Below are positions 30,272-48,919 of a stretch of 48,919 nt of DNA, in pieces (positions within the stretch are counted from its first letter, which is position 1; each line of letters begins with the position of its first letter). The notes beneath the pieces are model-generated. The model saw only the letters and a list, made by a program, of their open reading frames with translations, did not search any database and was not told where the DNA came from. The translations under genes and the position numbers were made by a program. The DNA comes from Clostridia bacterium. GTDB lineage: Bacteria; Bacillota; Clostridia; Oscillospirales; RGIG577. The stretch spans positions 1 to 48,919 of the forward strand of contig JAFWDJ010000041.1 of NCBI GenBank assembly GCA_017513095.1, written 5' to 3'.

Positions 30272-30282
30272 ACGCTCACCTC

Positions 30283-32010: not shown

Positions 32011-32087
32011 AGAGTCTCGCCTCCGTATTTTTTATTGTATTTCTTTACATCCGGCGGTCGCCGGATGTTTTCCCGCTGTCTGTTCAT
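32007..32087 (-). CDS. Micro-ORF coupled to the HEPN-ParB gene
   Basis: A 26-codon frame starts at ATG 32087 with GAGGAG six bases upstream. It encodes a basic peptide (MNRQRENIRRPPDVKK, then YNKKYGGETL) and stops in an ATGA overlap with the HEPN-ParB start. A perfect ten-pair hairpin lies inside it (32047-32068). Upstream the same frame is open for about 20 codons to a TAG near 32150, so it could be the remnant of a longer gene. It could act as a leader peptide, and no homology is recognised. Confidence 0.4.
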   Translation of the reverse strand: MNRQRENIRRPPDVKKYNKKYGGETL

Positions 32088-32275
32088 CCACAGCTCCTCA
32101 GTGAGGCCTGCGTACAGATTGTGCCGGGGCTCCTTCCGCAGCGTCCGCTATTCTATGTCGGTGGATAACGGCGCAGAAGAGCTGCTGTCGATTTTTACGA
32201 TGCTGCCCCGACACGTTGCCTCACACCGCCGCAAATGGGATGTTGCGTTTCATTCGCGGCCGGTGCGTCCGCGTT
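32088..32275. other. Non-coding stretch between the MoxR and HEPN-ParB genes
   Basis: No convincing gene is seen. Short frames on the minus strand are interrupted by TAG and TAA. The interval interrupts an otherwise tightly packed locus, which fits either a decayed gene or an internal promoter region, but no good -35/-10 pair is visible. Confidence 0.4.
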
Positions 32276-32304
32276 TTCCCGGAAGCACGCGAGCGTGCCC
32301 CCTT
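32276..32304 (-). repeat. Conserved intergenic hairpin element, copy 3 (diverged)
   Basis: CCCGGAAGCACG and CGTGCCCCC (stem core GCACGC/GCGTGC) begin six bases after the MoxR stop. Pattern and position match the copies at 36085-36106 and 26831-26852. Confidence 0.45.
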
Positions 32305-32309
32305 TTATC

Positions 32310-33824: not shown

Positions 33825-33866
33825 GAGAACACCTCGTTTTCTCTAGAATTATATGATACGCTATTG

Positions 33867-36023
33867 TTACTCTGCCGCAAACGGGATGTTGTTTTCCTGA
33901 GCGTATTCTTCCGCATACGAACCCGCGGGGGCGTGGATGGTGAGGCTTTCGCAGCCGTAGAACGCAAAGCCGCCGATGCTCGTCACGCCCTCCGGCAGGG
34001 TAATGCTCGTGAGGCTTTCGCAGCCCCAGAACGCAACGTCGCCGATGCTCATTACGCTGTCCGGCAGGGTGATACTAGTAAGGTTTTTGCATTCTTTGAA
34101 CGCATAATGGCCAATGCTCGTCACACCGTCCGGTATAGTAATGTTCGTGAGGCTTTCGCAGCCGTTGAACGCACGGTCGCCGATGCTCGTCACGCCGTCC
34201 GGCAGGGTGATGCTCGTAAGGCTTTTGCAGTCCTCGAACGCCCCCCAACCAATGCTCGTCACTCCCTCCGGCAAGGTGATGCTCGTAAGGCTTTTGCAGC
34301 CCCAGAACGCGTATGCGCCGATGCTCGTCACGCTGTCCGGTATAGTAATATTCGTAAGGCTTTCGCAGCCGTAGAATGCCTGCCAGCCGATTGTCGTCAC
34401 GCCGTCCGGCAGATTGATGTTCGCAAGATTTTTGCATCCTTTGAACGCATAATTGCCGATGCTCGTCACACCGTCCGGTATAGTAATGTTTGTAAGGCTT
34501 TTGCAGTCCTCGAACGCACGGTCGCTGATGCTCGAAATACCCTTCGGTATAGTAATGCTCGTAAGACTTGTGCAGCAGTTGAACGCACGGTCGCCGATGC
34601 TCGAAATACCCTCCGGTATGGTGATGCTCGTAAGGCTTGTGCAGCCTTGGAATGCACCGTTGCCGATGCTCGTCACACCCTCCGGTATGGTGATGCTCGT
34701 AAGGCTTGTGCAGCCTTGGAATGCACCGTTGCCGATGCTTGTAACGCCGTCCGGAATAATGACCTCTTTAAGCTTTTCGCAGCCTTCGAAAGCTTCCGCC
34801 GGTATCTCATTGAACCATCCGGGTATCTCGACATTCTCTGCGTCTTTATGCCATTTTCCGACCATATTGTTGAACTTATCTTCCGTGATTATTTCCACGC
34901 CGAGGTCGGCTGCCTTTCTGTTCTTCTCCGAGCCGCTGTTCGTGTCGTTCGTCACGAGATAGTCCGTTTTCTTCGTTACGGACGGACCGAGCTTTGCGCC
35001 GTGTTTTTCAAGGTGTTCCTTTATATCCTTTCGTGATTCCCAGTGTTTAAGCGCTCCCGAAACAACGAACGTCATGCCCGCGATGCCCTGCGACGGATCA
35101 CGCTTCATCATTCTTTCAATGAACGCGTCCTCATATTCTTCTTTTTTCTTTTCCTTCTTATCACGTGCCTTAAAAACGTTCTCCATGCCGAGGCTGTTCT
35201 GATAATTGAGGATCATGGCCTTCTCTTCGACGTTGCCGCGCTTTTCTGCTTCCTCAATATATGCGTCCACGTCGCCCGACTTTATAAGCTTGTTTTCGCA
35301 GAGATAATAAAGAAGCTTCGGATTATCAAACGCGAACGAACAAAGCTTGCCAGCGTTCTTCTTCGCATAGTTTAAGTATGACTTTGACCGCTCCGATTCG
35401 GGGTCGCCGATTTCTTCCGATATAAATCCGAGCAGCGCACGTCGGCGGAGATTTACGGGGATATCCGTTATAAGGTCTTCCTTCGATATAATAACGGCGG
35501 TGCGGCCTTTGAACGTCTCCGTATAATACGGCTGCCAGCGCACACATTTTACCGTAAGGCTTTTGCAGCCGTCGAAAGCCCGGTTGCCGATTCTCGTCAC
35601 GCTATCCGGCAGGGTGATGCTCGTAAGGCTTTCGCAACGCCAGAACGCCTCTTCGCCGATTCTCGTCACGCTATCCGGCAGGGTGATGCTCGTAAGGCTT
35701 TCGCACCATGCGAACGCCCGGTCGCCGATGCTCGTCACGCCCTCCGGCAGGGTGATGTCCGTAAGGCTTTCGCATCCGTAGAACGCATAGTTACCGATGC
35801 TCGTCACGCCCTCCGGCAAGGTGATGCTCGTAATGCTATTGCAACGATAGAACGCAAAGTCGCCGATGCTCGTAAGACTGTTCGGCAGGGTTATGCTTTT
35901 TAGGCTTTCGCAGCGCCAGAACGCTTCTTTGCCGATGCTCGTCACGCCTTCCGGCACGACAACGTCCCCGTCGGGGCCGCAGTATTTCTTCAAAACGCCG
36001 TTTTCTATCACAAAAGCTCTCAT
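33867..36023 (-). CDS. LRR-BRCT-LRR protein
   Basis: The 718-residue cytoplasmic protein has an N-terminal LRR_5 array (about 15-175), a helical ankyrin-like region (about 185-320; GKLCSFAFDNPKLLYYLCE), a BRCT domain (about 325-405; GMTFVVSG, SVTKKTDYLVTND, GVEIITEDKF) and a C-terminal LRR array of about twelve units. It differs from its paralogue at 24754-26766 in lacking the N-terminal BRCT and having more repeats, while the middle region is strongly conserved. GGGAGG precedes the ATG. It sits between the VWA and MoxR genes, so it is the best candidate for a recognition subunit of that pair. Confidence 0.87.
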   Translation of the reverse strand: MRAFVIENGVLKKYCGPDGDVVVPEGVTSIGKEAFWRCESLKSITLPNSLTSIGDFAFYRCNSITSITLPEGVTSIGNYAFYGCESLTDITLPEGVTSIGDRAFAWCESLTSITLPDSVTRIGEEAFWRCESLTSITLPDSVTRIGNRAFDGCKSLTVKCVRWQPYYTETFKGRTAVIISKEDLITDIPVNLRRRALLGFISEEIGDPESERSKSYLNYAKKNAGKLCSFAFDNPKLLYYLCENKLIKSGDVDAYIEEAEKRGNVEEKAMILNYQNSLGMENVFKARDKKEKKKEEYEDAFIERMMKRDPSQGIAGMTFVVSGALKHWESRKDIKEHLEKHGAKLGPSVTKKTDYLVTNDTNSGSEKNRKAADLGVEIITEDKFNNMVGKWHKDAENVEIPGWFNEIPAEAFEGCEKLKEVIIPDGVTSIGNGAFQGCTSLTSITIPEGVTSIGNGAFQGCTSLTSITIPEGISSIGDRAFNCCTSLTSITIPKGISSISDRAFEDCKSLTNITIPDGVTSIGNYAFKGCKNLANINLPDGVTTIGWQAFYGCESLTNITIPDSVTSIGAYAFWGCKSLTSITLPEGVTSIGWGAFEDCKSLTSITLPDGVTSIGDRAFNGCESLTNITIPDGVTSIGHYAFKECKNLTSITLPDSVMSIGDVAFWGCESLTSITLPEGVTSIGGFAFYGCESLTIHAPAGSYAEEYAQENNIPFAAE
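33930..34780 (-). repeat. 69-bp tandem coding repeats, twelve-unit LRR array
   Basis: Unit boundaries run from 33975 to 34734 in steps of exactly 69 bp. Two neighbouring units (34612-34670 and 34681-34739) are identical over 59 bases. Confidence 0.92.
35545..35980 (-). repeat. 69-bp tandem coding repeats, N-terminal LRR array
   Basis: Boundaries fall at 35589, 35658, 35727, 35796, 35865 and 35934. The segments 35588-35636 and 35657-35705 are identical. Confidence 0.9.
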
Positions 36024-36053
36024 GATTATTCCTCCCTATTCTTATTTTCGTTA

Positions 36054-36120
36054 GATTAATGTGCGCCCTCGGTCATATTATCCCGGAGGCATGAGGGCAT
36101 GCCTCCCTGCGGGGCACGCT
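36054..36120 (-). repeat. Conserved intergenic hairpin element, copy 2
   Basis: GGAGGCATG and CATGCCTCC form a perfect nine-pair stem (36085-36106) next to TATCCCGG and TTAATGTGC blocks, between the VWA stop and the LRR start. The TTAATGTGC block lies 31 bp from the LRR start codon, as in copy 1. Confidence 0.65.
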
Positions 36121-36124
36121 TCCC

Positions 36125-37525
36125 CTATATCTCGTCTTTTCTAAGTATCAGCTTTATCGCCCACGGGGGCACGTCGTAGTTGTTGTATTCCTCGTCGAGG
36201 AAGAGAAACGCCGTACTGTATTTTGGCATTTTCTCGGGGAACGTGCCGTATCCGTCTGTGAAATATATAAGTCCCTTGAGATTCTGGAACTCTTTTTTCT
36301 CTATAAGCTCGTCGACGTATGAGAACACGGGGCGAAAATCGGTGCCTCCGAGTCCCTTTATCGTCATATTCTTAAGATAGCGGTCAAACTCCTCCTGTGT
36401 TGTAATCTTTACGTCCTCCTGAATCTCGGCGTCGCACTGGATGATGTGTAGATTTATCTTTGAAAAGAAGCTTTCCGTGCTTTTTAAGATGTTGTACGTC
36501 TTCTGCACGAACCTCTGCACAATATCGCCCGCAACGGAACCCGAGGTGTCTATAGCGATAACAAATTCGCGTATGCGCTTTACGTCCTTGTATTCGAGCG
36601 GCTCTATGAGCGGCATATTCTTATATAGCGAAAGCCCGTACGTATAAAAAATATAGTCGAACTCGTCGTCGTTTATCTTCATGACCTCGCCCAAAACGGC
36701 GAATCGCCGCAGAAATTCCGTATAATCGTACCGTTCGCGGTTCACTTCCTTTAAATTCTGCATAAGGCCTCCGGCGCGGTCGCCCTGCTGCTTTGAGAAG
36801 GTCTCCATGTCCATCTCTATGCGTTCGGAAACGTCCCGCCAGTCCTTCTCGGAGCCAAGCGGCGCATCCGTGGCGGCGCCGCCCGCGGCAGCCGCTTCGC
36901 CTTCGCCCTCCGCGTCGCCGTCGCCTTCACCGTCGCTCTCTCCCCGGCCGCCGCCCTTTCCGAGGCCGAGGGCGGATTTTTCTTCGTCGCTCATATACCA
37001 CACGCGGTGGTCGTCGGCGTAGAAAATGCCGCGAAGCTCCGCCATTTTCGCGGGCGGCAGCTTCTTATCAAGGTAATAGCGGTATATCTTCTCCGCCGTA
37101 AGCTGTCCCACCTTGCCCGAAAGCTCATTGTAAACGGCCGTCTGCCGCGCCTCGCGTGCCGCCGCGGTACATGAAAGCCCCAGCCCCGCGATGGAATACT
37201 CCGCCGCTATGTCGCAAGCCAAATCCCACGCGGTGTGATCGACGAGCGTATGTACGAACATATGCCGGTATATGCAGTGGAGCACAATGTGAAGATAATC
37301 GCGCACCGGCACCGTGCGCTCCGTTTTATAGCATTTTAAGATATGCCCCGGATCGTAGGCGATAAATCTTCCGTCCGTAGCGTACGTAAGCTCTTGTATC
37401 TCCACCGGCTCAAGACGGCTCAGCGCCGCGTCGAGAAAACGCAGATTCACAAGCAGCTGATTTCGCGACAGACTAAGCACGTCTCTTGCAAGCTGCGACC
37501 GTCTTATGCTTTTTTCTTCGTTCAT
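36125..37525 (-). CDS. DUF2201-type VWA protein
   Basis: This 466-residue protein is the usual partner of MoxR ATPases. The N-terminal region (about 1-175) resembles the DUF2201 zincin-like domain, with histidines at 79, 83 and 88 (LHIVLHCIYRH) but no HExxH. An acidic Gly/Glu/Ala linker (about 188-222) follows. The C-terminal VWA domain has a MIDAS DTSGS (Asp326, Ser328, Ser330), GGTDF further on, and TDGYG. The ATG at 37525 was chosen because AGGTGA lies five bases upstream. Metal-dependent binding by the MIDAS could link MoxR to its targets. Confidence 0.9.
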   Translation of the reverse strand: MNEEKSIRRSQLARDVLSLSRNQLLVNLRFLDAALSRLEPVEIQELTYATDGRFIAYDPGHILKCYKTERTVPVRDYLHIVLHCIYRHMFVHTLVDHTAWDLACDIAAEYSIAGLGLSCTAAAREARQTAVYNELSGKVGQLTAEKIYRYYLDKKLPPAKMAELRGIFYADDHRVWYMSDEEKSALGLGKGGGRGESDGEGDGDAEGEGEAAAAGGAATDAPLGSEKDWRDVSERIEMDMETFSKQQGDRAGGLMQNLKEVNRERYDYTEFLRRFAVLGEVMKINDDEFDYIFYTYGLSLYKNMPLIEPLEYKDVKRIREFVIAIDTSGSVAGDIVQRFVQKTYNILKSTESFFSKINLHIIQCDAEIQEDVKITTQEEFDRYLKNMTIKGLGGTDFRPVFSYVDELIEKKEFQNLKGLIYFTDGYGTFPEKMPKYSTAFLFLDEEYNNYDVPPWAIKLILRKDEI

Positions 37526-37590
37526 ATGATTCACCTGCCTGAATTTTACTATATCATACATTAGGCGCTCATGCACGCCGCTTCGGCGGG

Positions 37591-40500
37591 TCAGAGGATG
37601 AAGTCGAGTAAATTATACAACTCCGGTGCGTCCGGATTATTTTTCTGACTGCACAACATGAAAGCCGGCTTTTTCGGCTCTTCGGGCAACGGATGCGCCT
37701 TTGATATTTTCGCATTCAGCGAAAGCGTCTGCCGTGATACTTTTGTCGGTATCGCCGCAATATCCCGTGTGTACTCTTCCTTCGCTTCGTCTCTTTTCTT
37801 TCTGATTTCCGGAAGCGTAACGCCGTTTAACTGCTCGATTATACTTCTGAGCGCGCGTTTTTTCGAGAAGCTGAAGAATCCGAGCTGCGAAAGCTGTGAC
37901 TCCGACCGTGCAAGCTCCTCATTCGCTTTTGTCTCCTCGTCGTCAAGAGCGCGAAGGGCATTCACCCTTTTTTCCTCCGCTTCGGCCTCTAATTCGGCGC
38001 GCAGCTTCTCCGTTGCCTCCTTTAAAGCCGCGTTTCGTCTTTCTTCTATAACCCTGCACTCTTCTCTCCATTTTGCATACGCCTTCTCATATTCCGCCTT
38101 CTGCTTCTTTTCTCTTTCCTCCCGCCTGCGCTTTTTTTCGGCCTCACGGGCTTCTCTTTCTTTTCTCTCTATCTCTTCAAGGCGCTGCTTCTCCAAAAGA
38201 AACTCTTTGCGCGCATTGCAGTATGATATAAGAATTGCCAAAGCCCCGGGCCTCGCTTCTGCAAGTCGCGCCTCTTCTATACGTCTGTTCTCCTCCGCGA
38301 TACGCTTTTTTTCGGCCTCGCGCTCTTTTCTCTCCTTTTCGGCCCGCTTCTTTTCCATCTCCTTCTTTTTTTCTGCGGGCGGCGGGCCTACACGGCTTTT
38401 AAGCTTTTTCGCGTATGCCGAGCTAGCCTCGATCTTATTGCTCTTGTCGATCGTGACCGTAAGCGTTGTTTCCCCGGCTACCATCTTCAGCACGTCGTAT
38501 ACCTTGTCAAGCAATTTGCTGTCGGGATTCGATTTCGACAGCGCAAGATATACGCTTTCGCATCGTTTAAGCAGTTCATCAAGATGTCCGACCGTGGTTT
38601 CAAGTATCGTTTTTATGTTCCTTTTGAACTCCGGTATATTTGCTTTACCGCTTTGGGAGTCGAGCTTTAAGAACTGCACTTCAATATTTATTTCAATCGT
38701 TCTTGCATTAAGTAAATGCTCCTGCCAGCTTTCGACAAGCGCCTTCCACTCCTTCACGAGAGCGGCGGTCAGCTTAGAGGACGTAAAGCGGTCGTCGTCG
38801 GGATATTCGAGATAATTTAGGCTTTTCTTCGGTCTTATATGTCGGAATACTTCCAAAATCACGTCATCATATGCGGGGCGGTCCTTTCTTTTGATTCCGT
38901 CGAGCTGAATGCGCATTGAGCGCAGGCCGTTCGTCATGCAGGCGAAAACGTTGGCGTGAACAACGCTGCCGTCGTATGCTATCGATACAGCCCCCGGGAA
39001 CGCTTTTTCTTCAAACGGAATCGTTTTTACCGATTCAAACATGCTGTTTAATGCTCCCCCGAGTCCGCCGCTTCCTCTTTTTATGGCTTCGGCTCCCAAT
39101 TTGTTGAGCGCAATGTATTCCGGAAGCGTGGCGCAATTCTTTATACTGTCATTATCGAAAAGCTGTCCCGCAAAAATAACAAAATCGGAGCCGAACATGC
39201 CCTTTTGCCCCTTTGACGGGCGATACGCAATAAAATCGCGTCCCTCAGCGCCCACTTCTATAACAAATCCGTCGGGGATGTCCATTTCATAATTCGGGCC
39301 GTACGCCTTATTGCCGTCGTTATACGTGATCACTGCGGCAGCCGCATTTTTCGCGGGTGTTTTCGCAGGCTTTTCGGTCTGTGCAGGCTTTTTGTCGGCG
39401 GTTGCGGGCTTTTTATCGGCCGGTGCAGGCTTTTTTTCCGCACTTGCGCTTTTTTTCTCTTTTTTCTCCGTTTCAAATCCAAGCGCCTTATAAAACCGCT
39501 CGGCTGTTATTACTTTAGTCGATGCGCAGCGTCCCTTAAGTCGCTGAAGATTTAGATCACGGATCTTCGAGTCGCCCGCGTATTTCGGTTCGCAGACAAG
39601 ATAATCCGTCTGTCCCGATACAGCCGTGCGGTAAAGGCCGCCTTTTTTCTGCAGCATTTTCAGTGCCTCATCCCAGTTCTTGCTGGCCTCCATGCCGCTG
39701 AAAACGAACTTTTTCCCCGCGAATACAACTTTCGAGCGTTTGTCAAGAAGCGACGAGTGCTTGTTCAGCCACTCCCTTTCGTGTTCGAGTGCGCTTTCCT
39801 CCATATAAGTCTCCCAATACGGCTTCTCATCGGGATGAGAGAACGAACAGTTCACGGGACCGTCCTCACTGAATATCGGCTCTCTCGCCGCATAAGCCAT
39901 AGAACACCATGCGTACAGTATATCCGCTGCGGCTCCTTCGAGCGGCTCGTTTCTGTCGCGTATGCTTTCAAGCTCAGCATGCAGCGTGCGCACAGCGGGC
40001 AGCATCCACGAAAGCTCGCTTCGCAATCCGTCAAGCGATGATACGGCGCATTTAGGCGCATCATCGGGAACTCCTGCGTTGACAGCCTTTAAGAGGGCTG
40101 TTCTGTCCGTCTTTGTGACCGCATCGGGAAGGTAGTATACATGAATGTCGTCACCCGAGCAGAGCACGGGGCATATTTCGTTCTCCGTGTAATTGAGGCA
40201 GCCGTTATGCGATACAAAGTAAGCTATATCAAGGAGCGTATCTATGGCCGCGTCGGCCGGTTCTGTCTCATTGTCGCGGCAGTACGCGCCGAGCGTCCAT
40301 GCGAAGGAGCGAAGCGCGTTGTAATTAAAAGCCCGCTGTATAAAGCCGCTTTTTATCTCCTGCTCACGGTCGTGGCCGGCGTCGAACGCCTCTATAGACA
40401 CGCGGAAAAGCTCCGACATCTTAAGCGCCTCGTCGGCCGCCGAAAATCCTCCCTTGTCCTTCGCGCACGCGCGCTTAAGCACTTCTTTTATCTTCGCATC

Positions 40501-41202
40501 CTCCGTTATTTCGGCTTCTCTCTTAAGCGGCACGAACGCATATTCCGTACCCGTTTGATTTACCTGCGCGATGCCGCCCAAAAGCCCGAAAACGTTTTTT
40601 GACTTGTTAAGAAAATCAAGATGCGTATGCTGTCCCGCTTTCGGTTTTCCGATGCGAAACTCCCCGTCGTAGGACGGGCCCGCTTCGCTTGCCGCCTCGT
40701 TTGCCAGCTTTATGAGCATATCTGCGGTGATCGGCTCAAAAACGCCCTTGTCGTTGTCTATCACCATGCAGTTAAGTACCGAGCTCAGATGAAGCGCGAC
40801 GCTTTCGATAGTTATTTCCCTGTCCTCGGGCCGTCCCGCCCTGACGATCGCCATGGAATACGCCGCGCCCTTATGCAAGACGTTTACGCCTGCGATAACG
40901 GCCGTCACGTCAAATATGAGCATTCTATCTTCCCTTATTATGCACTTTACAACTGCCTCGAAACTGCCTTTCAGATTGACCTCCGAGCTGTCAAAAGCGG
41001 CCGCGTCCATGTTTGCAACCTTTACGGCATAAGGTACATCGTCTCTTAATGCTTCACTTTGGCCTTCGGAAATGCATTCTATTTGAAAAAACGTATCGCC
41101 ATCGTCGTCCGTTTCGCGCTTTGCCGTATATCCGCTTTTTAGTTCAAACTCAAGATGATTGTCAAATCTCTCGCTGCTTTTGTTATTTCGCGCGCTTGCC
41201 AT
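37591..41202 (-). CDS. Giant BRCT and coiled-coil protein
   Basis: The 1203-residue cytoplasmic protein has an N-terminal 500 residues of unknown fold and one BRCT domain (about 520-605; KFVFSGMEASKNWDEA, SGQTDYLVCEPKY). An alanine/lysine/proline-repeat linker (about 610-655; KKPAPADKKPATADKKPA) and another unassigned globular region (about 660-870) follow. A very long E/K/R-rich coiled coil (about 960-1150) comes last. The ATG at 41202 has AAAGGA eight bases upstream and overlaps the WYL gene by 20 bp. It resembles no family I can name. Architecture suggests a DNA-bound scaffold. Confidence 0.72.
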   Translation of the reverse strand: MASARNNKSSERFDNHLEFELKSGYTAKRETDDDGDTFFQIECISEGQSEALRDDVPYAVKVANMDAAAFDSSEVNLKGSFEAVVKCIIREDRMLIFDVTAVIAGVNVLHKGAAYSMAIVRAGRPEDREITIESVALHLSSVLNCMVIDNDKGVFEPITADMLIKLANEAASEAGPSYDGEFRIGKPKAGQHTHLDFLNKSKNVFGLLGGIAQVNQTGTEYAFVPLKREAEITEDAKIKEVLKRACAKDKGGFSAADEALKMSELFRVSIEAFDAGHDREQEIKSGFIQRAFNYNALRSFAWTLGAYCRDNETEPADAAIDTLLDIAYFVSHNGCLNYTENEICPVLCSGDDIHVYYLPDAVTKTDRTALLKAVNAGVPDDAPKCAVSSLDGLRSELSWMLPAVRTLHAELESIRDRNEPLEGAAADILYAWCSMAYAAREPIFSEDGPVNCSFSHPDEKPYWETYMEESALEHEREWLNKHSSLLDKRSKVVFAGKKFVFSGMEASKNWDEALKMLQKKGGLYRTAVSGQTDYLVCEPKYAGDSKIRDLNLQRLKGRCASTKVITAERFYKALGFETEKKEKKSASAEKKPAPADKKPATADKKPAQTEKPAKTPAKNAAAAVITYNDGNKAYGPNYEMDIPDGFVIEVGAEGRDFIAYRPSKGQKGMFGSDFVIFAGQLFDNDSIKNCATLPEYIALNKLGAEAIKRGSGGLGGALNSMFESVKTIPFEEKAFPGAVSIAYDGSVVHANVFACMTNGLRSMRIQLDGIKRKDRPAYDDVILEVFRHIRPKKSLNYLEYPDDDRFTSSKLTAALVKEWKALVESWQEHLLNARTIEINIEVQFLKLDSQSGKANIPEFKRNIKTILETTVGHLDELLKRCESVYLALSKSNPDSKLLDKVYDVLKMVAGETTLTVTIDKSNKIEASSAYAKKLKSRVGPPPAEKKKEMEKKRAEKERKEREAEKKRIAEENRRIEEARLAEARPGALAILISYCNARKEFLLEKQRLEEIERKEREAREAEKKRRREEREKKQKAEYEKAYAKWREECRVIEERRNAALKEATEKLRAELEAEAEEKRVNALRALDDEETKANEELARSESQLSQLGFFSFSKKRALRSIIEQLNGVTLPEIRKKRDEAKEEYTRDIAAIPTKVSRQTLSLNAKISKAHPLPEEPKKPAFMLCSQKNNPDAPELYNLLDFIL

Positions 41203-42256
41203 CCTTATCATCCTTTCTTTTTTCTGCCGCACGGACTTTTCGTTTTACTGCGCATGAAGGCGTCGCGCGCTCCTGCTTCACGCGCGCGGGCGCGTCTGCC
41301 TGCCGGGACGTTTTTTCTTCGCTCTTTCCTGCGTCTATGACCTCTATTACGTCGCCCTGGCCCCTGAGCCAGATGTCCACGCCGTCGCCGTATACCTCGG
41401 CCTTTATAATCCAGCCGCTTTTATCATGCGATACTACCTCCGCCGTCGGGAAGCGGTCGAGCACGGATTCTATGCTTATCCCCTTATATTTAAAGCAGAT
41501 CGTCCTAAGCTCGCCGCCGAACATGAACTGGATGCGCTTTCTGAACTCGCCCTCCTGAAAGCGGTCGGCGTACGGTTCGTTGAAATGTATGTCCGTAAGC
41601 TCATATTCCGCTATTCTGTCTATGCGGTATATCGTGGGGAACGGATGCTTCGGCACGTCGGGCGTATCCTCGCCTGCGCAGATATAGGCGCACAGATAAA
41701 AGTAATACTCCGAAAACATGATGCCCACGGGCTGCACGAGCCTTGTCACCTTCTCGGGCTCCTTTAGCTTACGATAGCGCATCCGCATAAGCCTGCGCTC
41801 ATATACGGCGCTTGCTATGTTCCACATATCCTCGACAAATCTCTTTTGATGGTGCGGCTCAAGATAGTGATGCTTTTCGTTTGCAATGAGCTTTGCCACC
41901 TTCTTATAATTCGCATACGGCACGCAGCGCATTATAAGCTTGTCTATTATCGGATACATCTCGTCCTTTGTAAGCGATCTGCTCTCAAGCAGTATTTTGC
42001 ATACCGCGAGTATTTCGCTGTTCGTAAGCGTTTTTTTCGAATTCTGCACGAGCATATACCCCTTTTTCGCGCGGTCGTATATAAGCTCGCGGTCGGAATC
42101 GGGATCGTTTGCGAAAAACGAGCGGATGTCCTCTATATCCCGCTGTATCGAACGCTCGTTCACGCCGAATCGGGCTGCCTCGTCTGCCTTTACGATGAGC
42201 TCGCCCTCAACGACGCGGTTATACATATTGATAATTCTTTCTATCTTTTTATCCAT
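41183..42256 (-). CDS. HTH-WYL transcription regulator
   Basis: The 357-residue protein has a DeoR-like winged helix at the N terminus (about 1-60; RFGVNERSIQRDIEDIRSF) and a WYL domain (about 135-300; QPVGIMFSEYYFYLCAY, YRIDRI). A very basic tail of about 50 residues follows, which is unusual. WYL proteins commonly repress defence operons (BrxR and CapW type) until a nucleic-acid or nucleotide signal binds. The gene lies inside the locus, 36 bp after the exonuclease gene, which points to autoregulation. GAGGAG precedes the ATG. Confidence 0.88.
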   Translation of the reverse strand: MDKKIERIINMYNRVVEGELIVKADEAARFGVNERSIQRDIEDIRSFFANDPDSDRELIYDRAKKGYMLVQNSKKTLTNSEILAVCKILLESRSLTKDEMYPIIDKLIMRCVPYANYKKVAKLIANEKHHYLEPHHQKRFVEDMWNIASAVYERRLMRMRYRKLKEPEKVTRLVQPVGIMFSEYYFYLCAYICAGEDTPDVPKHPFPTIYRIDRIAEYELTDIHFNEPYADRFQEGEFRKRIQFMFGGELRTICFKYKGISIESVLDRFPTAEVVSHDKSGWIIKAEVYGDGVDIWLRGQGDVIEVIDAGKSEEKTSRQADAPARVKQERATPSCAVKRKVRAAEKRKDDKDGKRAK

Positions 42257-42292: not shown

Positions 42293-43681
42293 TTAATCGT
42301 CCCAGCTCTCTATATCGGCAATCATATCGTCAAGCCCGCCGGGCATGTCGGGGTTATCCATCTCTTTAAGCTTCAAAAACGCCTTCGCCGTCGTTACAGC
42401 GTCCGAAAGAGCTCGGTGCGCCTGCGGATTCTCAACCGAAAGCGCGTCTGCGAGAGTCTCGAGCGATACTTTCGGGGTTTTTATCCCAAGCTCACGCTTA
42501 AACTTTTCAGCGTAGCTCATAACATCGAAAAAGGCGTTCTTCATTTCGATGTGCGCGTACCTTCCCGCTCTCACAAGAAAGCGGCTGTCAAAACTTATGC
42601 AGTTGAAGCCGACAAGCACGCAGCCGTCGGCAAAATCCATGAAATCCTTAAATACGTCCCACACCTCGCGGGCGTCCTTCAGGTCGTCGGGCGTTATGCC
42701 TGTAAGCTCCTGAACGTATTCGCTTAACTTCTTCCTGTCAATCGTTTTTGTGAAGCTTTGGAAAACGTTTTCTCCGCTTTCCGGCACGACTCCGTTTATG
42801 ACCCTGACCGCTCCTATCTCGATTATCGAGTCTTTTTTCGGGTCAAATCCCGTTGTCTCCACGTCGAACGCCACGAACGTGTCAAATCCGCAGTCGCGCG
42901 TCTCTGTCGGGTCGGGATAATCTTCACGCGGTATCGGCTTCGGCCGTGCGCTTTTTTGTACCGGAGGTTTTGCCTCGATGCCGAGCGACGAAATAAAGGC
43001 AATGTACCGTGCCTGCACCTTAGCTGCGTTTTCCTTTGGATTCGGCATATACTCGCCCTTTCCCGTCGCGGCCTTTTCCATACGGTCGCGGTTCTTTTTC
43101 TCAAGATAATTAAATGCGCCCGCTTTTTCGGAATCGTCCCGAAAGCGCGCCCGGGCCTCGGCGATTATGCGCGCCGCCTCGTCATATCTCCGCGTGGTCA
43201 TATAAAACTCCGCGAGGTTTAAATACGCCTGCGGCGGAACGTCGGCCGCGCCGCAAAGAAGCTTTGCCGTCTCTTCGGCCTTTTCGTATTCGTAATCCAT
43301 ATAATACGCGCCGAGCGCGACTCCGCGCAGACGGTTTATCTCAAACGAGGAAAGCCCCGCTGCATCCTTATTCTTATCGTATATCTCGTAAAACCACGGT
43401 CTGCTTTTCTTTTGCACGTTCGCGCCGTCCCCGATTATGGAAAGCACTTTCATATACTCCCGCTTCGGCGGCAAAAGCCGGTCGCTCAGCGCAAAAACGA
43501 CGCTTTTAAAATTACCTGCATGAGACAGTCCCGCCGCGGCCGCGTCCCAAACGGGATTTTCGCCGCATCCCGGCCTGTACGCAAGTATTTCCACGCAAAG
43601 CCTTTCAATATCTGTCGTTTCGCGGCATGCGCCGCATAATATGCTTTCGCTTTCTTTTCCGCATTTGATACATACCGTCAT
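42293..43681 (-). CDS. Zinc-ribbon, TPR-like and DEDDh (DnaQ) exonuclease protein
   Basis: The 462-residue protein opens with a zinc ribbon (Cys4, Cys7, Cys16, Cys19). A helical TPR-like stretch (about 110-200) follows, then a linker, and the exonuclease domain from about 268. Its catalytic residues are Asp273 and Glu275 (AFDVETTGFD), Asp365 (NCISFDSRFL), and His422 and Asp427 (AHRALSDAV). This is a 3'-5' exonuclease of the epsilon type. The ATG at 43681 follows AAGGAGAA and overlaps the helicase stop by four bases, so the two are coupled and may form one DNA-resection unit. Confidence 0.9.
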   Translation of the reverse strand: MTVCIKCGKESESILCGACRETTDIERLCVEILAYRPGCGENPVWDAAAAGLSHAGNFKSVVFALSDRLLPPKREYMKVLSIIGDGANVQKKSRPWFYEIYDKNKDAAGLSSFEINRLRGVALGAYYMDYEYEKAEETAKLLCGAADVPPQAYLNLAEFYMTTRRYDEAARIIAEARARFRDDSEKAGAFNYLEKKNRDRMEKAATGKGEYMPNPKENAAKVQARYIAFISSLGIEAKPPVQKSARPKPIPREDYPDPTETRDCGFDTFVAFDVETTGFDPKKDSIIEIGAVRVINGVVPESGENVFQSFTKTIDRKKLSEYVQELTGITPDDLKDAREVWDVFKDFMDFADGCVLVGFNCISFDSRFLVRAGRYAHIEMKNAFFDVMSYAEKFKRELGIKTPKVSLETLADALSVENPQAHRALSDAVTTAKAFLKLKEMDNPDMPGGLDDMIADIESWDD

Positions 43682-46554
43682 TTTAAATTCTCCTTTTCTT
43701 GCTTGCCCATAGGCTCCATGCCGCAAACGCAGCGCATATCGCAGAACGCGCAGGCTAAACCGTCCTTCGCGCCCTCCTCGAAGCGTTTGCCCTCAATATT
43801 TGCAATAGTTTGAGCGGCCTCCGATATGGCGGTCTTTATGGCCTCGTCCGTCCGCTCGAACGTGATAAGCGGATCGCCGTCCGTCCGGCTCGTATAGTAA
43901 AGGTGCATACGGCTTACTCTCCTGCCGTATCGCTTCTCGGTAAGATATGCGTATATCTCAAGCTGCCGCCTGTAATGCGCGACGCGCTGAGGCTCCTTTG
44001 ATATATCGGGCTTCGGCCCCGTCTTATAGTCGACTATCTCGACCGTATCTCCGTTGCTTTCGATAAGGTCGATTACGCCCTGAAGAATAAAGTCGGGCAG
44101 CACGAGATTGATCTCCTGTTCGGCCTTCCATACGCGCTTTATGTGATCACGCCTGAGATCGTAATATGAAAGCACCTGCGAAAGCGCGTTTTCTCGCTCT
44201 TCCTCGGTAAGATAAAAGCCCGTGTGCTCCTGCAGGGCGGAGTAATTGAGCATGAGCCATTCGCTTATCGACGTCTCTGTAACCTCGTGTGCGCGTCCCG
44301 CGATCGCGCGCCTGTTTATATCCTCCAGCGTCTCATGCACTAGCGTGCCTATCGCCGTATGCTTCATTTTATTGCGCGCGAAGGCGTATTCCTTGAAATA
44401 CTTGTACTGCTTCGGACAGCCGTCGTATATCGAGATATGCGACGTAAACGAATATACTCGCTTGTATTTTGCGGCCTTCACGCCCGAAAACGCGGCCGCG
44501 GAATCGAACATTTCTATATCGGGCAGCTTATCCACATATGGAGCGAAGTGCTTTCCTACGGGCGTCTTCCCTGCAAGAATCAAAAGATCCTGCGCCCTTG
44601 AAAAGGCCGTATAATACAGCCTGTAGAAATCAAAGAATCGTATATCGCTCAGCGGCTCGAACGGTCTTCTGTGGAAAAAGCGGCTCTCCGCGGAATAAAG
44701 CAGATTGTCGATGCTTTGCCGCGGCCTGCCCGAGAGCGAACACGCCACGACAGCGGGAAATTCAAGCCCCTTCGCCTGATGCACCGTCATAAACGAAACG
44801 CAGCCCGACGGCGCATATTCCGATTCGTCCTCGTATTCGCCGATGCCCTCGTCTATCATGAATCTGAGGTAAATATTGAACAGCTCCTCGGGCATGGCCG
44901 TTTTGTTCTGCTCTGTGACGGCGTGCATATCGTGAAGATGCGAAAAACGCGACAGCATCCGTGAAAGCTCCGACAGATTCCGCGCCGCGCGGCTTTTTCT
45001 GATGTCGGCGCTGTCCGCCTGAAGGTATTCTTTGAACGGCTGCGCCGCGATTATGTGATAGAACATGGTCAAAAGGCCAATTTCGGACGTTTCACCGGGC
45101 TTTCTTATAAACGCAATCGTTTTTCCTATGTAATCGTAAAGCGCGGGGTCCGCCTTAATCAAGGGCACCGCTGCCTTGAGGCATGATTTATAATACGATT
45201 TGAGGTCGTCCGATATGGTATACCTGAATCTATCGTTTTTAATATCCGCCGTATAGCTTTGAAAGCACATCATAAGGCAGCCGAGAAGCCGCTTGACCTC
45301 GTCTCGCTCGAAAAACATATCCGATCGCGGCGAATATACGGGAATGCCGTTCTTCTCAAGAAATCGGCCGATTTCCACGGCCTCATTGCTCTTTACCGAC
45401 CTGAACAAAAACGCGATCTGATTGAGATTGCCGATATTCCCGCTTTTTATAAGCCTTTGTATCGTTGAAAGCAGCCGAACGCCCTGCTCTTCTACGGAAT
45501 CCGCCGTGCAGGAATAGACCGAGCCGCACGCATGGCGCGGCTCCTTCGCAGCGCGGATATGCTTTTCGTAACGGAAGTTGTTCCAGTTGAACACGTTCAC
45601 ACCGTCCGCGTTTTCCATCCATCGGCTGTAAAAGCCGATGATCTGAGGCTCGGAGCGGTAATTTACGTCAAGATGAATCTTTTTGCACTCGCCTGCGGCG
45701 AATTTATCGGGAAATTCGAGAATATTTCTTATCGTCGCGCCGCGGAAGCGGTACATGCCCTGATCGTCGTCGCCCACGGCGCAAATGTTATGCCTGTCGC
45801 CCGCGATAAGCATAAGAAGCTGTTCCTGTATGTAATTCGTATCCTGATATTCGTCCACCATAATATACTTTATGCCTTCCCTGACCTTTGAAAGAAGCGC
45901 GGGATTCATACGAAGCATATCGTAGGCTGCGGTCTGCACCGTGGAAAAATCAAGAGCCCCGCGGCGGCGCAAAAGCTCACGGTAGCGCTTTACGAGCTTC
46001 GCAAGAAAGCGCATATCGGGGTCGGCGTCGCACTCCATCGCGTCGACGTCCGCAAGCTCCTCAGTCAGCAGATTTACATACCGGCATATTTCAAGCGACT
46101 GACGCCACACGCTCTTCGCCCTTATATGGTCAGCGAAGCCGCTTATGCTCCTGAAGCTTTCAATGCTGCGGCAGACGAGATACGTCTGCTCGAAGGCGTC
46201 AAGCATGCGCCTGCCGCCGCCGTTTTCGATGTATTCGGAGTTCTCCTTCATAATCCTCAGGCATACCGAATGGAACGTGCCGAGATACATATCGTTCACG
46301 TTTATGCTTTCGTCGTACTTTATAAGCTCGTTCGATATCCTTGTAAGAAGCTCCTTCGCGGCCTTCTGCGTGAACGTGACGCACATTATCTCGCCCGGCG
46401 CGACGCCCAGCTGCGTTACTAGATACGATATGCGCTTCACCAGAGTGAACGTCTTGCCCGTACCGGGCCCCGCGATTATAAGCACGGGTCCCTCGGTCGT
46501 CGTTACGGCTTCTCGCTGCGCGTCGTTGAGCGAAGCGAAATCATACTCTTTCAT
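43678..46554 (-). CDS. UvrD/Rep-type helicase with PD-(D/E)XK nuclease and cysteine cluster
   Basis: The 958-residue SF1A helicase has motif I GPGTGKT (29-35), motif II VDEYQDTN, motif III GDDDQGMYRFRG, motif V TVHQAKGLEF and motif VI YYTAFSRAQ. The C-terminal 200 residues form a RecB/AddB-type nuclease with Asp829 (GVIDLI) and Asp842-x-Lys844 (VDYKTG). Near the end Cys935, Cys938, Cys942 and Cys944 follow an earlier Cys in DGCPKQYKYF, as in the iron-staple nucleases of AddB and Cas4. The ATG at 46554 has AGGTG six bases upstream. It combines in one chain what AddA and AddB share. Confidence 0.9.
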   Translation of the reverse strand: MKEYDFASLNDAQREAVTTTEGPVLIIAGPGTGKTFTLVKRISYLVTQLGVAPGEIMCVTFTQKAAKELLTRISNELIKYDESINVNDMYLGTFHSVCLRIMKENSEYIENGGGRRMLDAFEQTYLVCRSIESFRSISGFADHIRAKSVWRQSLEICRYVNLLTEELADVDAMECDADPDMRFLAKLVKRYRELLRRRGALDFSTVQTAAYDMLRMNPALLSKVREGIKYIMVDEYQDTNYIQEQLLMLIAGDRHNICAVGDDDQGMYRFRGATIRNILEFPDKFAAGECKKIHLDVNYRSEPQIIGFYSRWMENADGVNVFNWNNFRYEKHIRAAKEPRHACGSVYSCTADSVEEQGVRLLSTIQRLIKSGNIGNLNQIAFLFRSVKSNEAVEIGRFLEKNGIPVYSPRSDMFFERDEVKRLLGCLMMCFQSYTADIKNDRFRYTISDDLKSYYKSCLKAAVPLIKADPALYDYIGKTIAFIRKPGETSEIGLLTMFYHIIAAQPFKEYLQADSADIRKSRAARNLSELSRMLSRFSHLHDMHAVTEQNKTAMPEELFNIYLRFMIDEGIGEYEDESEYAPSGCVSFMTVHQAKGLEFPAVVACSLSGRPRQSIDNLLYSAESRFFHRRPFEPLSDIRFFDFYRLYYTAFSRAQDLLILAGKTPVGKHFAPYVDKLPDIEMFDSAAAFSGVKAAKYKRVYSFTSHISIYDGCPKQYKYFKEYAFARNKMKHTAIGTLVHETLEDINRRAIAGRAHEVTETSISEWLMLNYSALQEHTGFYLTEEERENALSQVLSYYDLRRDHIKRVWKAEQEINLVLPDFILQGVIDLIESNGDTVEIVDYKTGPKPDISKEPQRVAHYRRQLEIYAYLTEKRYGRRVSRMHLYYTSRTDGDPLITFERTDEAIKTAISEAAQTIANIEGKRFEEGAKDGLACAFCDMRCVCGMEPMGKQEKENLK

Positions 46555-47335
46555 AGCGCACACCTATCGCTTTCATAAAGTCACAGATTCGGTTAAGGCT
46601 GATTTCGTCGGCGTAAATTTTAAGCGTTACCGCGCCGTCCGGCTGTGCGGGCGCGCTTTCTGCGGCTTTGGGCGCTTCGGCGGCCTGTGCGGGCACGCTC
46701 ACCTGAGGAGCGATGCTTTTAAGCGACTCCGCAAGCTCCGCGGCCTTTGATTTTACGGCGTCCATCGACATAGTCTGAGAGTACACGCGAAGCAGCGCCT
46801 CCTCGAAGGGCGATTTTGTCTTTTTTATCTCCTCGATATCGCCGGCCGCGAGGTTTATCGCCTCGAGCACGCCCTGTTCGTATTTGTTTCGCGCCGTCGA
46901 CGCGTTGAGCCACTTTTCGTCAAGCAAAACGGGAAAGAGCGCGTCGGACAGCGCGCCGAGATGGGCGGACTTCCTGTCGTAAAAATCACGTATCTCCTGC
47001 CTTTTTATCTCTTTCTGACGCTTTTCGAAATCCTTCACAGTTGAATCTATCGCGTTTATATGCCTGTCCACAACGGCGACAAGCGACTTTATCTCGGGCT
47101 CTATCGCGTTGTAAGGCGCAAGGCACTTTTCCTTGTATTTCTTTCGCTCGGTCTCGATGGACGATTTTACATCCTTGAGCAGTTTGCGGTCGTCCTTTGC
47201 CGCCTTTATATTCTCGTCCGTGTATACGGTCTTTTCGTAGCGTGCAAGCCTTTCTTCAAGTCTTTCACGAAGCGCGGGAAAATCCCACATCGTTACATCG
47301 GTATTGTCGATTGTTATAAGCTCGTTGTTTTTCAT
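46541..47335 (-). CDS. DUF1351 phage-type protein
   Basis: The 264-residue protein matches the DUF1351 family found in phage recombination and replication modules. It has an N-terminal region with LKDVKSSIETERKKYKE, a coiled-coil centre with DRHINAIDSTVKDFEKRQ, a low-complexity A/P/S linker (about 210-235) and a short C-terminal beta-alpha unit. Its stop lies inside the start of the helicase-nuclease gene (14-bp overlap), so the two are co-translated. AAGGAGG precedes the ATG. Its biochemical role is unknown, but phage homologues sit near RecT-like and exonuclease genes. Confidence 0.75.
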   Translation of the reverse strand: MKNNELITIDNTDVTMWDFPALRERLEERLARYEKTVYTDENIKAAKDDRKLLKDVKSSIETERKKYKEKCLAPYNAIEPEIKSLVAVVDRHINAIDSTVKDFEKRQKEIKRQEIRDFYDRKSAHLGALSDALFPVLLDEKWLNASTARNKYEQGVLEAINLAAGDIEEIKKTKSPFEEALLRVYSQTMSMDAVKSKAAELAESLKSIAPQVSVPAQAAEAPKAAESAPAQPDGAVTLKIYADEISLNRICDFMKAIGVRYERV

Positions 47336-47414: not shown

Positions 47415-48919
47415 CTACCACTCCAGCGTAAATTCGTCCATCGGGTCAAAGTCGGCGAAGTGGGCGTTTTTGTATTCCAAAAGCGCGGCCAATACGTTTA
47501 CGGCGTTCGCCTCCTGCGCGGCGGCGATAAAATCGGTGATCTGCGCGATATTGCAGCCGCGCACAAAGTCCATCGCGCTTATATCGTCCTTTTCTATGCG
47601 GCCGAGGACCGTCACGCGGTCGAGGTAGGCGACGGCATGGTTTACCGCCCTGCTGTATGAATATATTTTAAAGCTTTTAATATCACAGAACGTCACCGTT
47701 TTTCCGCTCGCAGCCTGCTCAGACGTCCATTTTGCGTCAACCGTGCATCCGGGAATAACAAGCTTCTCGCTCAGGCCGTGTTTGACCGCGCCCTGAAGCT
47801 GAAAGAAGTTTATCGGGCAGCCCGCGTATCGGTCGGGTGCGATATCATCCTTAGTATGTACGGGCTCCCATATCTGCGCAAAGGGCTGCTTTAGTCCTCG
47901 CGCCGTAAAATACGCCTGCCATGCCTCTGTCTCGCTTGTTTCCATTTCCATCGGATGCGCCGCGCGTATCGGCTTATCGCTCAATACGTACGGCGTGCCG
48001 TCGCTTCGTACAAGGCCTCCGTCGGTGCGGGTAAAGTAATTTTTGTCCTGCTCCCATACGATAAGGCACGCCACTCCGTGAAGCACGGGATTCCCTGAAT
48101 ATGCGCGCTCCCATTTATCGGCGGCTCGCCCTTTCCCGCTTATGAAATCTCCGAGTATCAGATCGGCGCGGTTCTTCCAGATGCTTTTTACGTCCTTTTT
48201 CATTTTGGCAAGCTCGCTTTTGGCTTTATCGTACTTTTCTGAATCGGCGCCCTTTTTAGGCAGAGATTTTGCGGTCTTCCCGTCTGGCAGCTCTATTGAA
48301 AACGTAAAATCGGAAAGCATCCTCACCGTGACGGTTTGGTTTCCGAGGTCAAGATGTCTGCATCGGTCTTTGTCAAGACCAAGGTCCGAAAGCATGTTGT
48401 CTCTTAGCTCGTCCTCATCAAGACCGCGAATTCTTGCGTATTTGTCAAGCTCTTTTCGCTTATCGGAAAGAAGCATCGCCGCCCTCGTGTCGCTGTATAG
48501 ATACGCCGCTTGGAATTTTTCATTCCATGCTTTGACGAAGTGTTTTGAAGCTTTTATCAAATCGGCCATTTGGTCTTCGTCCGCCTGCTTTATATATTCA
48601 CCCATATTTTTGAAACCCGTGGACAGTTCTTTGCTTTGCCCTATCAGCGTAAGCAGTCCGGAGTCATATTTATCCGGCAGGATGATGCTTTTTAGGCTTT
48701 TGCAGCCGAAGAACGCACCGCTGCCGATGCTCGTCAAGCTGTCGGGTATTGTGATGCTCGTAAGGTTTTTGCAGCCGTTAAACGCATCGTCGCCGATGGT
48801 CGTCACGCCTTCAGGCAGAGTGATGCTCGTAAGGCTTGTGCAGCCCTCGAACGCCCCCAAACCGATGCTCGTCACACCCTCCGGCAGGGTTATGTTCTTA
48901 AGGCTTTCGCACCACGCGA
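47415..48919 (-). CDS. LRR-DUF4132 protein, 5' end off the window
   Basis: About 500 C-terminal residues are present. The frame stays open through the right edge, so the N terminus is missing. It begins within a 69-bp-repeat LRR array (CESLKNITLPEGV and similar), then switches to a DUF4132 region with GLKQPFAQIWEPVH near the middle and a C-terminal MDFVRGCNIAQITDFIAAA segment with an ankyrin-like end (NVLAALLEYKNAHF). DUF4132 proteins occur beside MoxR and VWA genes, as I recall for E. coli YehI/YehL/YehP. A 79-bp gap separates it from the DUF1351 gene. Confidence 0.8.
   Translation of the reverse strand, partial: AWCESLKNITLPEGVTSIGLGAFEGCTSLTSITLPEGVTTIGDDAFNGCKNLTSITIPDSLTSIGSGAFFGCKSLKSIILPDKYDSGLLTLIGQSKELSTGFKNMGEYIKQADEDQMADLIKASKHFVKAWNEKFQAAYLYSDTRAAMLLSDKRKELDKYARIRGLDEDELRDNMLSDLGLDKDRCRHLDLGNQTVTVRMLSDFTFSIELPDGKTAKSLPKKGADSEKYDKAKSELAKMKKDVKSIWKNRADLILGDFISGKGRAADKWERAYSGNPVLHGVACLIVWEQDKNYFTRTDGGLVRSDGTPYVLSDKPIRAAHPMEMETSETEAWQAYFTARGLKQPFAQIWEPVHTKDDIAPDRYAGCPINFFQLQGAVKHGLSEKLVIPGCTVDAKWTSEQAASGKTVTFCDIKSFKIYSYSRAVNHAVAYLDRVTVLGRIEKDDISAMDFVRGCNIAQITDFIAAAQEANAVNVLAALLEYKNAHFADFDPMDEFTLEW
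48680..48919 (-). repeat. 69-bp tandem coding repeats in the LRR-DUF4132 gene
   Basis: Boundaries at 48726, 48795 and 48864 are 69 bp apart and share unit sequence with the other arrays. The array continues off the right edge. Confidence 0.85.

What the first reader, a model, noticed from the sequence alone, without database searches (positions are those of the whole stretch)
42293..46554. Translationally coupled helicase-nuclease and DEDDh exonuclease
Seen: ATGA overlap between a UvrD-type helicase carrying its own PD-(D/E)XK domain with a putative iron-staple cysteine set, and a zinc-ribbon DnaQ exonuclease. Inference: together they form a DNA-resecting or invader-degrading unit, a one-chain counterpart of AddAB plus a proofreading-type trimmer.
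Basis: partly seen in the sequence, partly recalled or inferred. Interest (0 to 1): 0.6.

Follow-up and report, generated by a model that had tools for sequence, protein, structure and literature searches.

The report
Helicase-nuclease cassette with exonuclease partner
In a gut-type bacterium, a DNA-unwinding and DNA-cutting enzyme of a family already suspected of fighting viruses sits in a small gene cassette with a second DNA-chewing enzyme, a phage-recombination-type protein and a regulator; the same cassette recurs in a few other genomes and in one bacterial virus, so it looks like a transferable DNA-degrading module, probably for defence.

Summary
In detail: an ATGA overlap couples a UvrD helicase/PD-(D/E)XK protein (43678-46554, -) to a Cys4/helical/DEDDh exonuclease (42293-43681, -). 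The coupling is wider than reported: a DUF1351 gene overlaps the helicase start and a WYL regulator follows the exonuclease. DUF1351-helicase-exonuclease order recurs in all five loci found; WYL is seen in three. One copy lies in a prophage between endolysin and a serine recombinase. The genome has a separate AddA/AddB pair, and both congeners held lack the helicase. The helicase belongs to the published UvrD-Cas4 fusion family, usually placed before type III restriction Mod and Res genes (25 of 34 tree rows); the five exonuclease-type rows group together. So this is a partner-swapped variant of a known defence-associated helicase-nuclease, not a one-chain AddAB. A DNA-end-degrading anti-invader role is most likely but unproven; the exonuclease also occurs without the helicase (G307).

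The parts
46541..47335 (-). DUF1351 protein (264 aa), first gene of the coupled set; its end overlaps the helicase start by 14 nt
   Evidence: PF07083 1.9e-24; phrog_674; upstream of the helicase in 5 of 5 exonuclease-type loci (in L045 a 171-aa ORF lies between)
43678..46554 (-). UvrD-type SF1 helicase fused to a Cas4/RecB-like PD-(D/E)XK nuclease (958 aa)
   Evidence: Pfam; conserved catalytic and cysteine residues; tree
45700..46530 (-). UvrD/REP helicase N-terminal domain
   Evidence: PF00580
43723..44442 (-). PD-(D/E)XK nuclease domain with H740, D829, D842, K844, Q864, Y868 and cysteine set C713, C935, C938, C944
   Evidence: PF12705; 32 of 32 readable rows
42293..43681 (-). exonuclease partner (462 aa): Cys4 ribbon, helical-repeat region, C-terminal DEDDh domain
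43625..43672 (-). CxxC...CxxC putative zinc ribbon, C4 to C19 of the exonuclease
   Evidence: invariant in the six sequences aligned
42377..42874 (-). DEDDh exonuclease domain (RNase_T)
   Evidence: PF00929; closest solved chain by sequence is 2p1j, PolC exonuclease domain
41183..42256 (-). HTH-WYL regulator, 36 nt after the exonuclease
   Evidence: PF13280; 68% and 76% identical in L045 and L142 next to the same module

Best explanation
A horizontally moving DNA-degrading cassette, most likely an anti-phage or anti-plasmid module. Shown: a conserved gene set DUF1351, UvrD-Cas4-type helicase-nuclease, Cys4/DEDDh exonuclease and (three loci) WYL, with intact catalytic residues, patchy distribution and one copy carried by a prophage. 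Inferred: DUF1351, which in a phage relative sits between an end-processing exonuclease and a RecT annealing protein, helps the enzyme engage DNA ends or recombination intermediates; the helicase-nuclease moves 3'-5' along one strand, unwinds the end and cuts with its iron-stapled nuclease; the DEDDh enzyme removes remaining 3' single strands, so the end is destroyed rather than handed to RecA; the WYL protein keeps the set repressed until a ligand signals damage or infection. In the sister branch of the same helicase family, type III Mod/Res takes the place of DUF1351 and the exonuclease, so the helicase-nuclease is the shared engine and the partners set its target.
For: Five loci share DUF1351-helicase-exonuclease order and their helicases form one group in 100% of 200 bootstrap trees, although branch support is only 86/58. 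Sister loci carry type III Mod and Res, also on Enterococcus, Nitrosomonas and Phaeobacter plasmids. PMC5704561 section 8 concludes from Mod/Res, WYL and Dcm/Vsr contexts that UvrD-Cas4 fusions are defence components. Prophage copy: L142's record holds portal, large terminase and tail tape-measure genes, and also type I R-M genes; the module lies between endolysin and a serine recombinase. Patchy: 0 of 2 congeners, 7 of 394 in the order at E <= 1e-60. AddAB is separate. Dorea phage DO134P1 gene order is YqaJ exonuclease, DUF1351, RecT, RusA. A PADLOC model called RTasHel (label DRT) matches the helicase at positions 5-360 and the exonuclease at 400-510, which suggests that a fused version exists. 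About half (48%) of BrxR-family WYL homologues lie with known defence systems (PMC9122601 abstract).
Against: No activity has been measured. Only five loci are known; in two of them no WYL is visible before the contig ends. G307 has a 49%-identical full-length exonuclease and no helicase at E <= 1e-60, so the pair is not obligate. PADLOC has no model for this module; its matches are to generic helicase or exonuclease domains. No base-composition shift marks the region. DUF1351 gave no fold match and no profile link to Gam (very shallow profiles). 17 of the 19 order genomes with a related WYL lack the helicase, so the WYL protein is not specific to the module.
Confidence: 0.55

Rival explanations
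1. A mobile recombination or repair cassette: the helicase-nuclease resects ends, the DEDDh enzyme trims 3' flaps, and DUF1351 works as in phage recombination modules. It helps a prophage or island recombine and does not attack invaders.
For: DUF1351 relatives lie next to RecT/Redbeta, Erf and Sak4 annealing proteins in phages (PMC8093625, passages; Dorea phage). The module is on a prophage. PMC5704561 itself allows partial redundancy with RecB.
Against: No annealing protein was seen in the module. In the prophage it lies beside endolysin and recombinase, not with the DNA polymerase gene. Sister helicases pair with restriction genes. A DEDDh 3' exonuclease would be expected to remove the 3' tails that recombination needs (inference).
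Confidence: 0.25
2. A loose gene-island neighbourhood: helicase-nuclease and exonuclease each act alone, and co-transcription only reflects shared transfer.
For: The exonuclease occurs without the helicase in G307. Related WYL proteins sit by McrBC or dynamin-like genes.
Against: Same order and tight spacing in five loci at 36-61% protein identity to the window; helicases with the exonuclease neighbour group together.
Confidence: 0.15
3. The unit replaces AddAB as the cell's own end-resection enzyme.
For: It is a single chain with helicase and iron-staple-type nuclease.
Against: AddA and AddB are both present on C27; both congeners lack the helicase.
Confidence: 0.03

Closest known systems
UvrD-Cas4 (pfam12705) helicase-nuclease fusions, PMC5704561 (2017)
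   Same: Same domain order; relatives at 36-47% identity have the type III Mod/Res neighbourhood described there; that section also mentions WYL regulators in several loci
   Different: Here the partners are DUF1351 and a Cys4/DEDDh exonuclease; section 8 and its Fig. 6 legend mention neither (supplements not read)
AddAB / RexAB helicase-nuclease
   Same: Helicase plus PD-(D/E)XK nuclease with a four-cysteine set of the AddB/Cas4 type (spacing recalled)
   Different: One chain, one helicase core, one nuclease; motor closest to PcrA/UvrD; a genuine AddAB is elsewhere in the genome
Gabija (GajA-GajB)
   Same: UvrD-like helicase working with a nuclease; PADLOC GajB models match the helicase domain
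   Different: No GajA hit listed among the five proteins scanned; the nuclease domain is fused to the helicase; the partner is DEDDh
Type III restriction-modification with upstream UvrD-Cas4 helicase
   Same: The same helicase-nuclease family leads the operon
   Different: No Mod or Res in this module
Phage YqaJ-DUF1351-RecT recombination modules
   Same: DUF1351 next to an end-processing nuclease
   Different: No RecT here; nuclease types differ

Membership tests
UvrD-Cas4 fusion (PMC5704561) | UvrD SF1 helicase fused to a C-terminal pfam12705 nuclease | tested here: met
   PF00580, PF13361, PF12705 and PF01930 over cut-off in one frame
UvrD-Cas4 fusion (PMC5704561) | Relationship to fusions that precede type III Mod/Res | tested here: met
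   36-47% identity over nearly the full length to Mod/Res-linked copies; tree; contexts. The paper's own accessions were not compared
UvrD-Cas4 fusion (PMC5704561) | Mod/Res or Dcm/Vsr neighbourhood (common, not universal, in the paper) | tested here: not met
   Neighbours are DUF1351, DEDDh exonuclease and WYL. This marks a variant, not exclusion, since the paper reports stand-alone and other contexts too
Cas4/AddB-type iron staple | Four cysteines, one before the nuclease core and three at its end (C-x2-C-x5-C; pattern recalled) | tested here: met
   C713, C935, C938, C944 in 32 of 32 readable rows
Cas4/AddB-type iron staple | 4Fe-4S cluster bound | not testable with these tools
   Needs purified protein
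AddAB | AddA/AddB model scores over cut-off | tested here: not met
   155 bits against a cut-off of 708 for TIGR02785; only a weak addB_alphas match; PcrA and UvrD models score higher
Gabija | GajA partner gene | tested here: not met
   No GajA among the hits listed for helicase, exonuclease, DUF1351, WYL and the 1213-aa protein (for the helicase only the best 25 of 67 families were shown)
Type III restriction-modification | Mod methyltransferase and Res next to the helicase | tested here: not met
   None among the neighbouring genes scanned
DEDDh exonuclease | D, E, D, H, D catalytic residues | tested here: met
   D273, E275, D365, H422, D427 invariant in the six sequences
Gam-type DNA-end protector (for DUF1351) | Profile similarity to Phage_Mu_Gam | tested here: inconclusive
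   hhalign probability 0.4% with 5- and 2-row profiles
BrxR-type WYL repressor | HTH plus WYL, repression of the neighbouring operon | tested here: inconclusive
   WYL domain over cut-off, HTH_11 only at E 0.037; repression not tested

The most novel reading that the evidence does not exclude
A defence module in which a phage-recombination accessory protein (DUF1351) has been taken over as the targeting or end-recognition subunit of a UvrD-Cas4 helicase-nuclease, with a DEDDh exonuclease to finish the 3' strand: a third wiring of this engine beside the type III R-M and Dcm/Vsr wirings, recognising DNA ends or recombination intermediates instead of a methylation-defined site.
Probability: 0.25. 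Interest if true: 0.68.

Novelty: new variant of a known kind. Interest (0 to 1): 0.42.

Why it matters
If true, one helicase-nuclease engine is exchanged between a methylation-guided restriction system and a methylation-free module that includes a phage-type recombination protein. That gives a direct test of how partner genes set the target of a RecB-like nuclease, and a first functional lead on DUF1351, a phage family without known function. The comparison with Gabija, where phage end-binding proteins license attack (PMC12407980, abstract and section 10), and with Hna, where a phage ssDNA-binding protein activates a nuclease (PMC13381803, abstract), makes the idea timely. If the module is only a repair cassette, it is an ordinary addition to a known family.

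Tried and rejected
AddAB replacement: rejected, AddA and AddB are on C27. Gabija and DRT by PADLOC: rejected as membership, since the hits are generic helicase and exonuclease domains. Fold of DUF1351: AlphaFold2 from 4 sequences, pLDDT 79.2, pTM 0.55; 0 of 35 Foldseek matches at E <= 0.001; VIA-align Z up to 9.2 only to assorted helical proteins, in the range the tool calls common for helical models. Not informative; Gam-like proteins were not listed, which excludes nothing. Fold of the exonuclease: pLDDT 61.8; the first 200 residues are helical with better confidence, the DEDDh half is poor; the best Foldseek match is the PolC exonuclease domain 2p1j at 2.9e-4, with weak TPR-like matches. 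The TPR label rests on a below-cut-off Pfam hit and is tentative. DUF1351 against a Gam profile: no link. Viral scan with the exonuclease alignment: 3 loci, generic DEDDh only; phage and plasmid tblastn with the exonuclease: 0 of 48 and 0 of 205 matched records cover 80% of the query. Viral scan with DUF1351: 1 locus, the L142 contig again. Link between the window's 1213-aa protein and the 709-aa protein after WYL in L045: not shown. Base composition: no shift.

Rows dropped or not used: of the 80 loci, thirteen (L055-L065, L071, L077) were examined for context; the other 67 (mostly about 26-38% identity, several partial) were not. Of the 27 loci (L135-L152, L157, L160) were examined. The tree used 34 helicases plus the genome's own PcrA as outgroup; L071, L077, L149-L152, L157 and L160 were not given to it. 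L050 was dropped as the same contig as L060; L062 (helicase in two frames), L064, L143 and L147 fell out because the helicase called there was split, short or hidden by another frame. L046 is counted as type III by a fragment only. L140 and L141 are identical; L141 was dropped for the residue count. One search was the same count with numbering off by one and is superseded.

Literature: nine paper searches were accepted. 'UvrD-Cas4' occurs in one paper of the held library; 'DUF1351' in four; DEDDh with UvrD, defense system and phage in none since 2018; DnaQ with UvrD, PD-DExK and defense in none. So I found no description of this exonuclease-type module, within those searches only.
Full report
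What is there. On the minus strand, 42293-47335 holds three tightly coupled genes. DUF1351 (46541-47335) overlaps the helicase start by 14 nt. The helicase-nuclease (43678-46554, 958 aa) overlaps the exonuclease (42293-43681, 462 aa) by the four bases ATGA. A WYL regulator (41183-42256) follows after 36 nt. A ribosome-binding-like AGGAG stretch precedes the exonuclease ATG (my reading).

Domains. The helicase-nuclease carries PF00580, PF13361, PF12705 and a weaker PF01930 (Cas4), all over Pfam's cut-offs. NCBIfam scores are highest for pcrA (248 bits), uvrD (240) and rep (208), all far below their equivalog cut-offs; addA_Gpos gives 155. Solved relatives by sequence are UvrD, PcrA and Rep, then 1095-residue UvrD/REP-titled chains (AdnB, recalled) and AddA. 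The exonuclease has four N-terminal cysteines, about 200 residues of predicted helices and a DEDDh domain nearest to PolC's proofreading domain by sequence.

Conserved residues. In 33 aligned rows (the window and 32 others, one truncated), C713, H740, D829, D842, K844, Q864, Y868, C935, C938 and C944 are the same in all 32 rows with a letter; C942 is a cysteine in the window alone. The exonuclease's C4, C7, C16, C19, D273, E275, D365, H422 and D427 are invariant in alignments A3 (window, L045, L051) and A6 (window, L055, L056, L142).

Own genome (1.99 Mb, 45 contigs, 97.7% complete): besides this helicase, PF00580 finds an 813-aa PcrA-like frame and a 1253-aa frame on C27. The latter is AddA (898 bits, cut-off 708); beside it is AddB (full-length TIGR02773 match, 608 bits, below the cut-off of 904). 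The only other RNase_T domain is in a 1364-aa frame, of PolC size (name inferred from length). The helicase is therefore not the only AddAB-type enzyme. The pair also recurs elsewhere (next paragraph).

Distribution. At E <= 1e-60, 7 of 394 genomes of the order have the helicase; at E <= 1e-100, 3 of 391 of the class and 3 of 297 in the family of G381, these counts including the window's genome or G381. Both congeners held lack it. Five loci have DUF1351, helicase and exonuclease in order: the window, L045 (G381), L055 (uncultured Ruminococcus), L056 (uncultured Lachnospiraceae) and L142 (an IMG/VR record). Identity to the window: helicase 54-61%, exonuclease 42-55%, DUF1351 36-46%, and WYL 68% and 76% in the two other loci where it is seen. 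L055 ends 387 nt after the exonuclease; in L056 no WYL was seen in the remaining 1.5 kb. Helicase-exonuclease spacing is -4 nt (window, L045), 14, 0 and 10 nt.

Prophage copy. The L142 record (56.6 kb) has portal, large terminase and tail tape-measure genes. The module lies after an endolysin (amidase/phage lysozyme) and before a serine recombinase; type I HsdM, HsdS and HsdR follow further on. That position, apart from the DNA polymerase gene, is what I would expect for cargo (inference).

The sister branch. Most other full-length relatives, at about 36-47% identity, stand before a type III-like Mod methyltransferase and a Res-like protein with a TnsA-like nuclease end. Examples on plasmids of Enterococcus casseliflavus, Nitrosomonas europaea and Phaeobacter inhibens show the same three genes, annotated as ATP-dependent DNA helicase, site-specific DNA-methyltransferase and TnsA endonuclease N-terminal domain protein. 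Of 34 tree rows, 25 are of this type (24 distinct; L046 by a fragment), 5 have the exonuclease and 4 have neither within 1.2 kb, two of these (L058, L060) near contig ends. The five exonuclease rows form one group in 100% of 200 bootstrap trees; the branch itself has only 86/58 support and the root is unsure, so which partner is older is not settled.

What is already known. PMC5704561, section 8 (read in full), describes UvrD-Cas4 fusions as one monophyletic family, most often with type III Mod and Res, sometimes with WYL/HTH regulators or with Dcm/Vsr, and proposes that they belong to several defence systems with a RecB/AddB-like nuclease role. The window's helicase fits that family. That section does not mention DUF1351 or a DEDDh partner. 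The present finding is thus a variant of a known kind.

What DUF1351 adds. In Firmicutes phages DUF1351 lies next to RecT/Redbeta, Erf or Sak4 genes, in the slot that Gam-type proteins occupy in others (PMC8093625, passages). In Dorea phage DO134P1 the order is YqaJ exonuclease, DUF1351, RecT, RusA. A structural model (pLDDT 79) is helical and gave no informative match; a shallow profile comparison with Gam gave nothing. An end- or intermediate-binding role is inferred from context alone.

Mechanism. Most likely the helicase-nuclease unwinds from a DNA end and cuts one strand, the DEDDh exonuclease removes 3' single strands, and together they destroy ends that AddAB would process for recombination. 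DUF1351 may bring the enzyme to ends or recombination intermediates, and WYL may hold the operon off. The engine and its intact active-site residues are shown; polarity, division of labour, targeting and regulation are inferred from families. Two recent studies make the targeting idea concrete: Gabija is licensed by phage end-binding proteins (PMC12407980, abstract and section 10) and Hna is activated by a phage ssDNA-binding protein (PMC13381803, abstract).

Results against. The exonuclease family occurs without the helicase in G307 (49% identity, full length). Related WYL proteins occur without the module's helicase in 17 of 19 order genomes that have one, next to other genes including McrBC and dynamin-like GTPases. 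No base-composition shift was seen. There are only five loci and no experiment.

Setting. The cassette lies in a run of accessory genes upstream of ftsE. In congener G001 FtsE and FtsX are 95% and 92% identical, but none of the island genes follow ftsE there. In G002 an LRR-like fragment stands there and the contig ends. Since the window's contig ends within an LRR/DUF4132 gene, the far border is not seen.

Noticed in passing
window 26886-37576: Accessory genes beside the cassette: HIRAN protein, a 966-aa protein with three RNA polymerase alpha-CTD domains and a sigma-70 region 4, HEPN_Swt1 protein, AAA (MoxR-like) ATPase and a VWA/DUF2201 protein, resembling a MoxR-VWA conflict system.
   Followed up: partly
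window 24754-26766, 33867-36023, 37591-41232: BspA-type leucine-rich repeats combined with BRCT domains in the first two; the third has a below-cut-off BRCT and coiled-coil-like stretches but no LRR hit. An unusual pairing in a bacterium.
   Followed up: no
window 47415-48919: LRR_5 plus DUF4132 protein running off the contig end, upstream of DUF1351.
   Followed up: no
L142:8683-9252: 189-aa ORF between exonuclease and WYL in the prophage copy contains a HIRNALAHG stretch like a HEPN R-x4-H motif (motif recalled; sequence; no Pfam hit).
   Followed up: no
L058:7666-11889: Helicase-nuclease relative in a 1407-aa frame with about 450 extra N-terminal residues; fusion or frame extension not resolved.
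   Followed up: no
L061:8938-17203: Helicase, Mod and Res with an extra 255-aa gene between helicase and Mod.
   Followed up: no
L148:7974-18818: A 32%-identical helicase relative on a viral contig followed by a 1081-aa protein, with diverged Mod- and Res-like genes further on.
   Followed up: no
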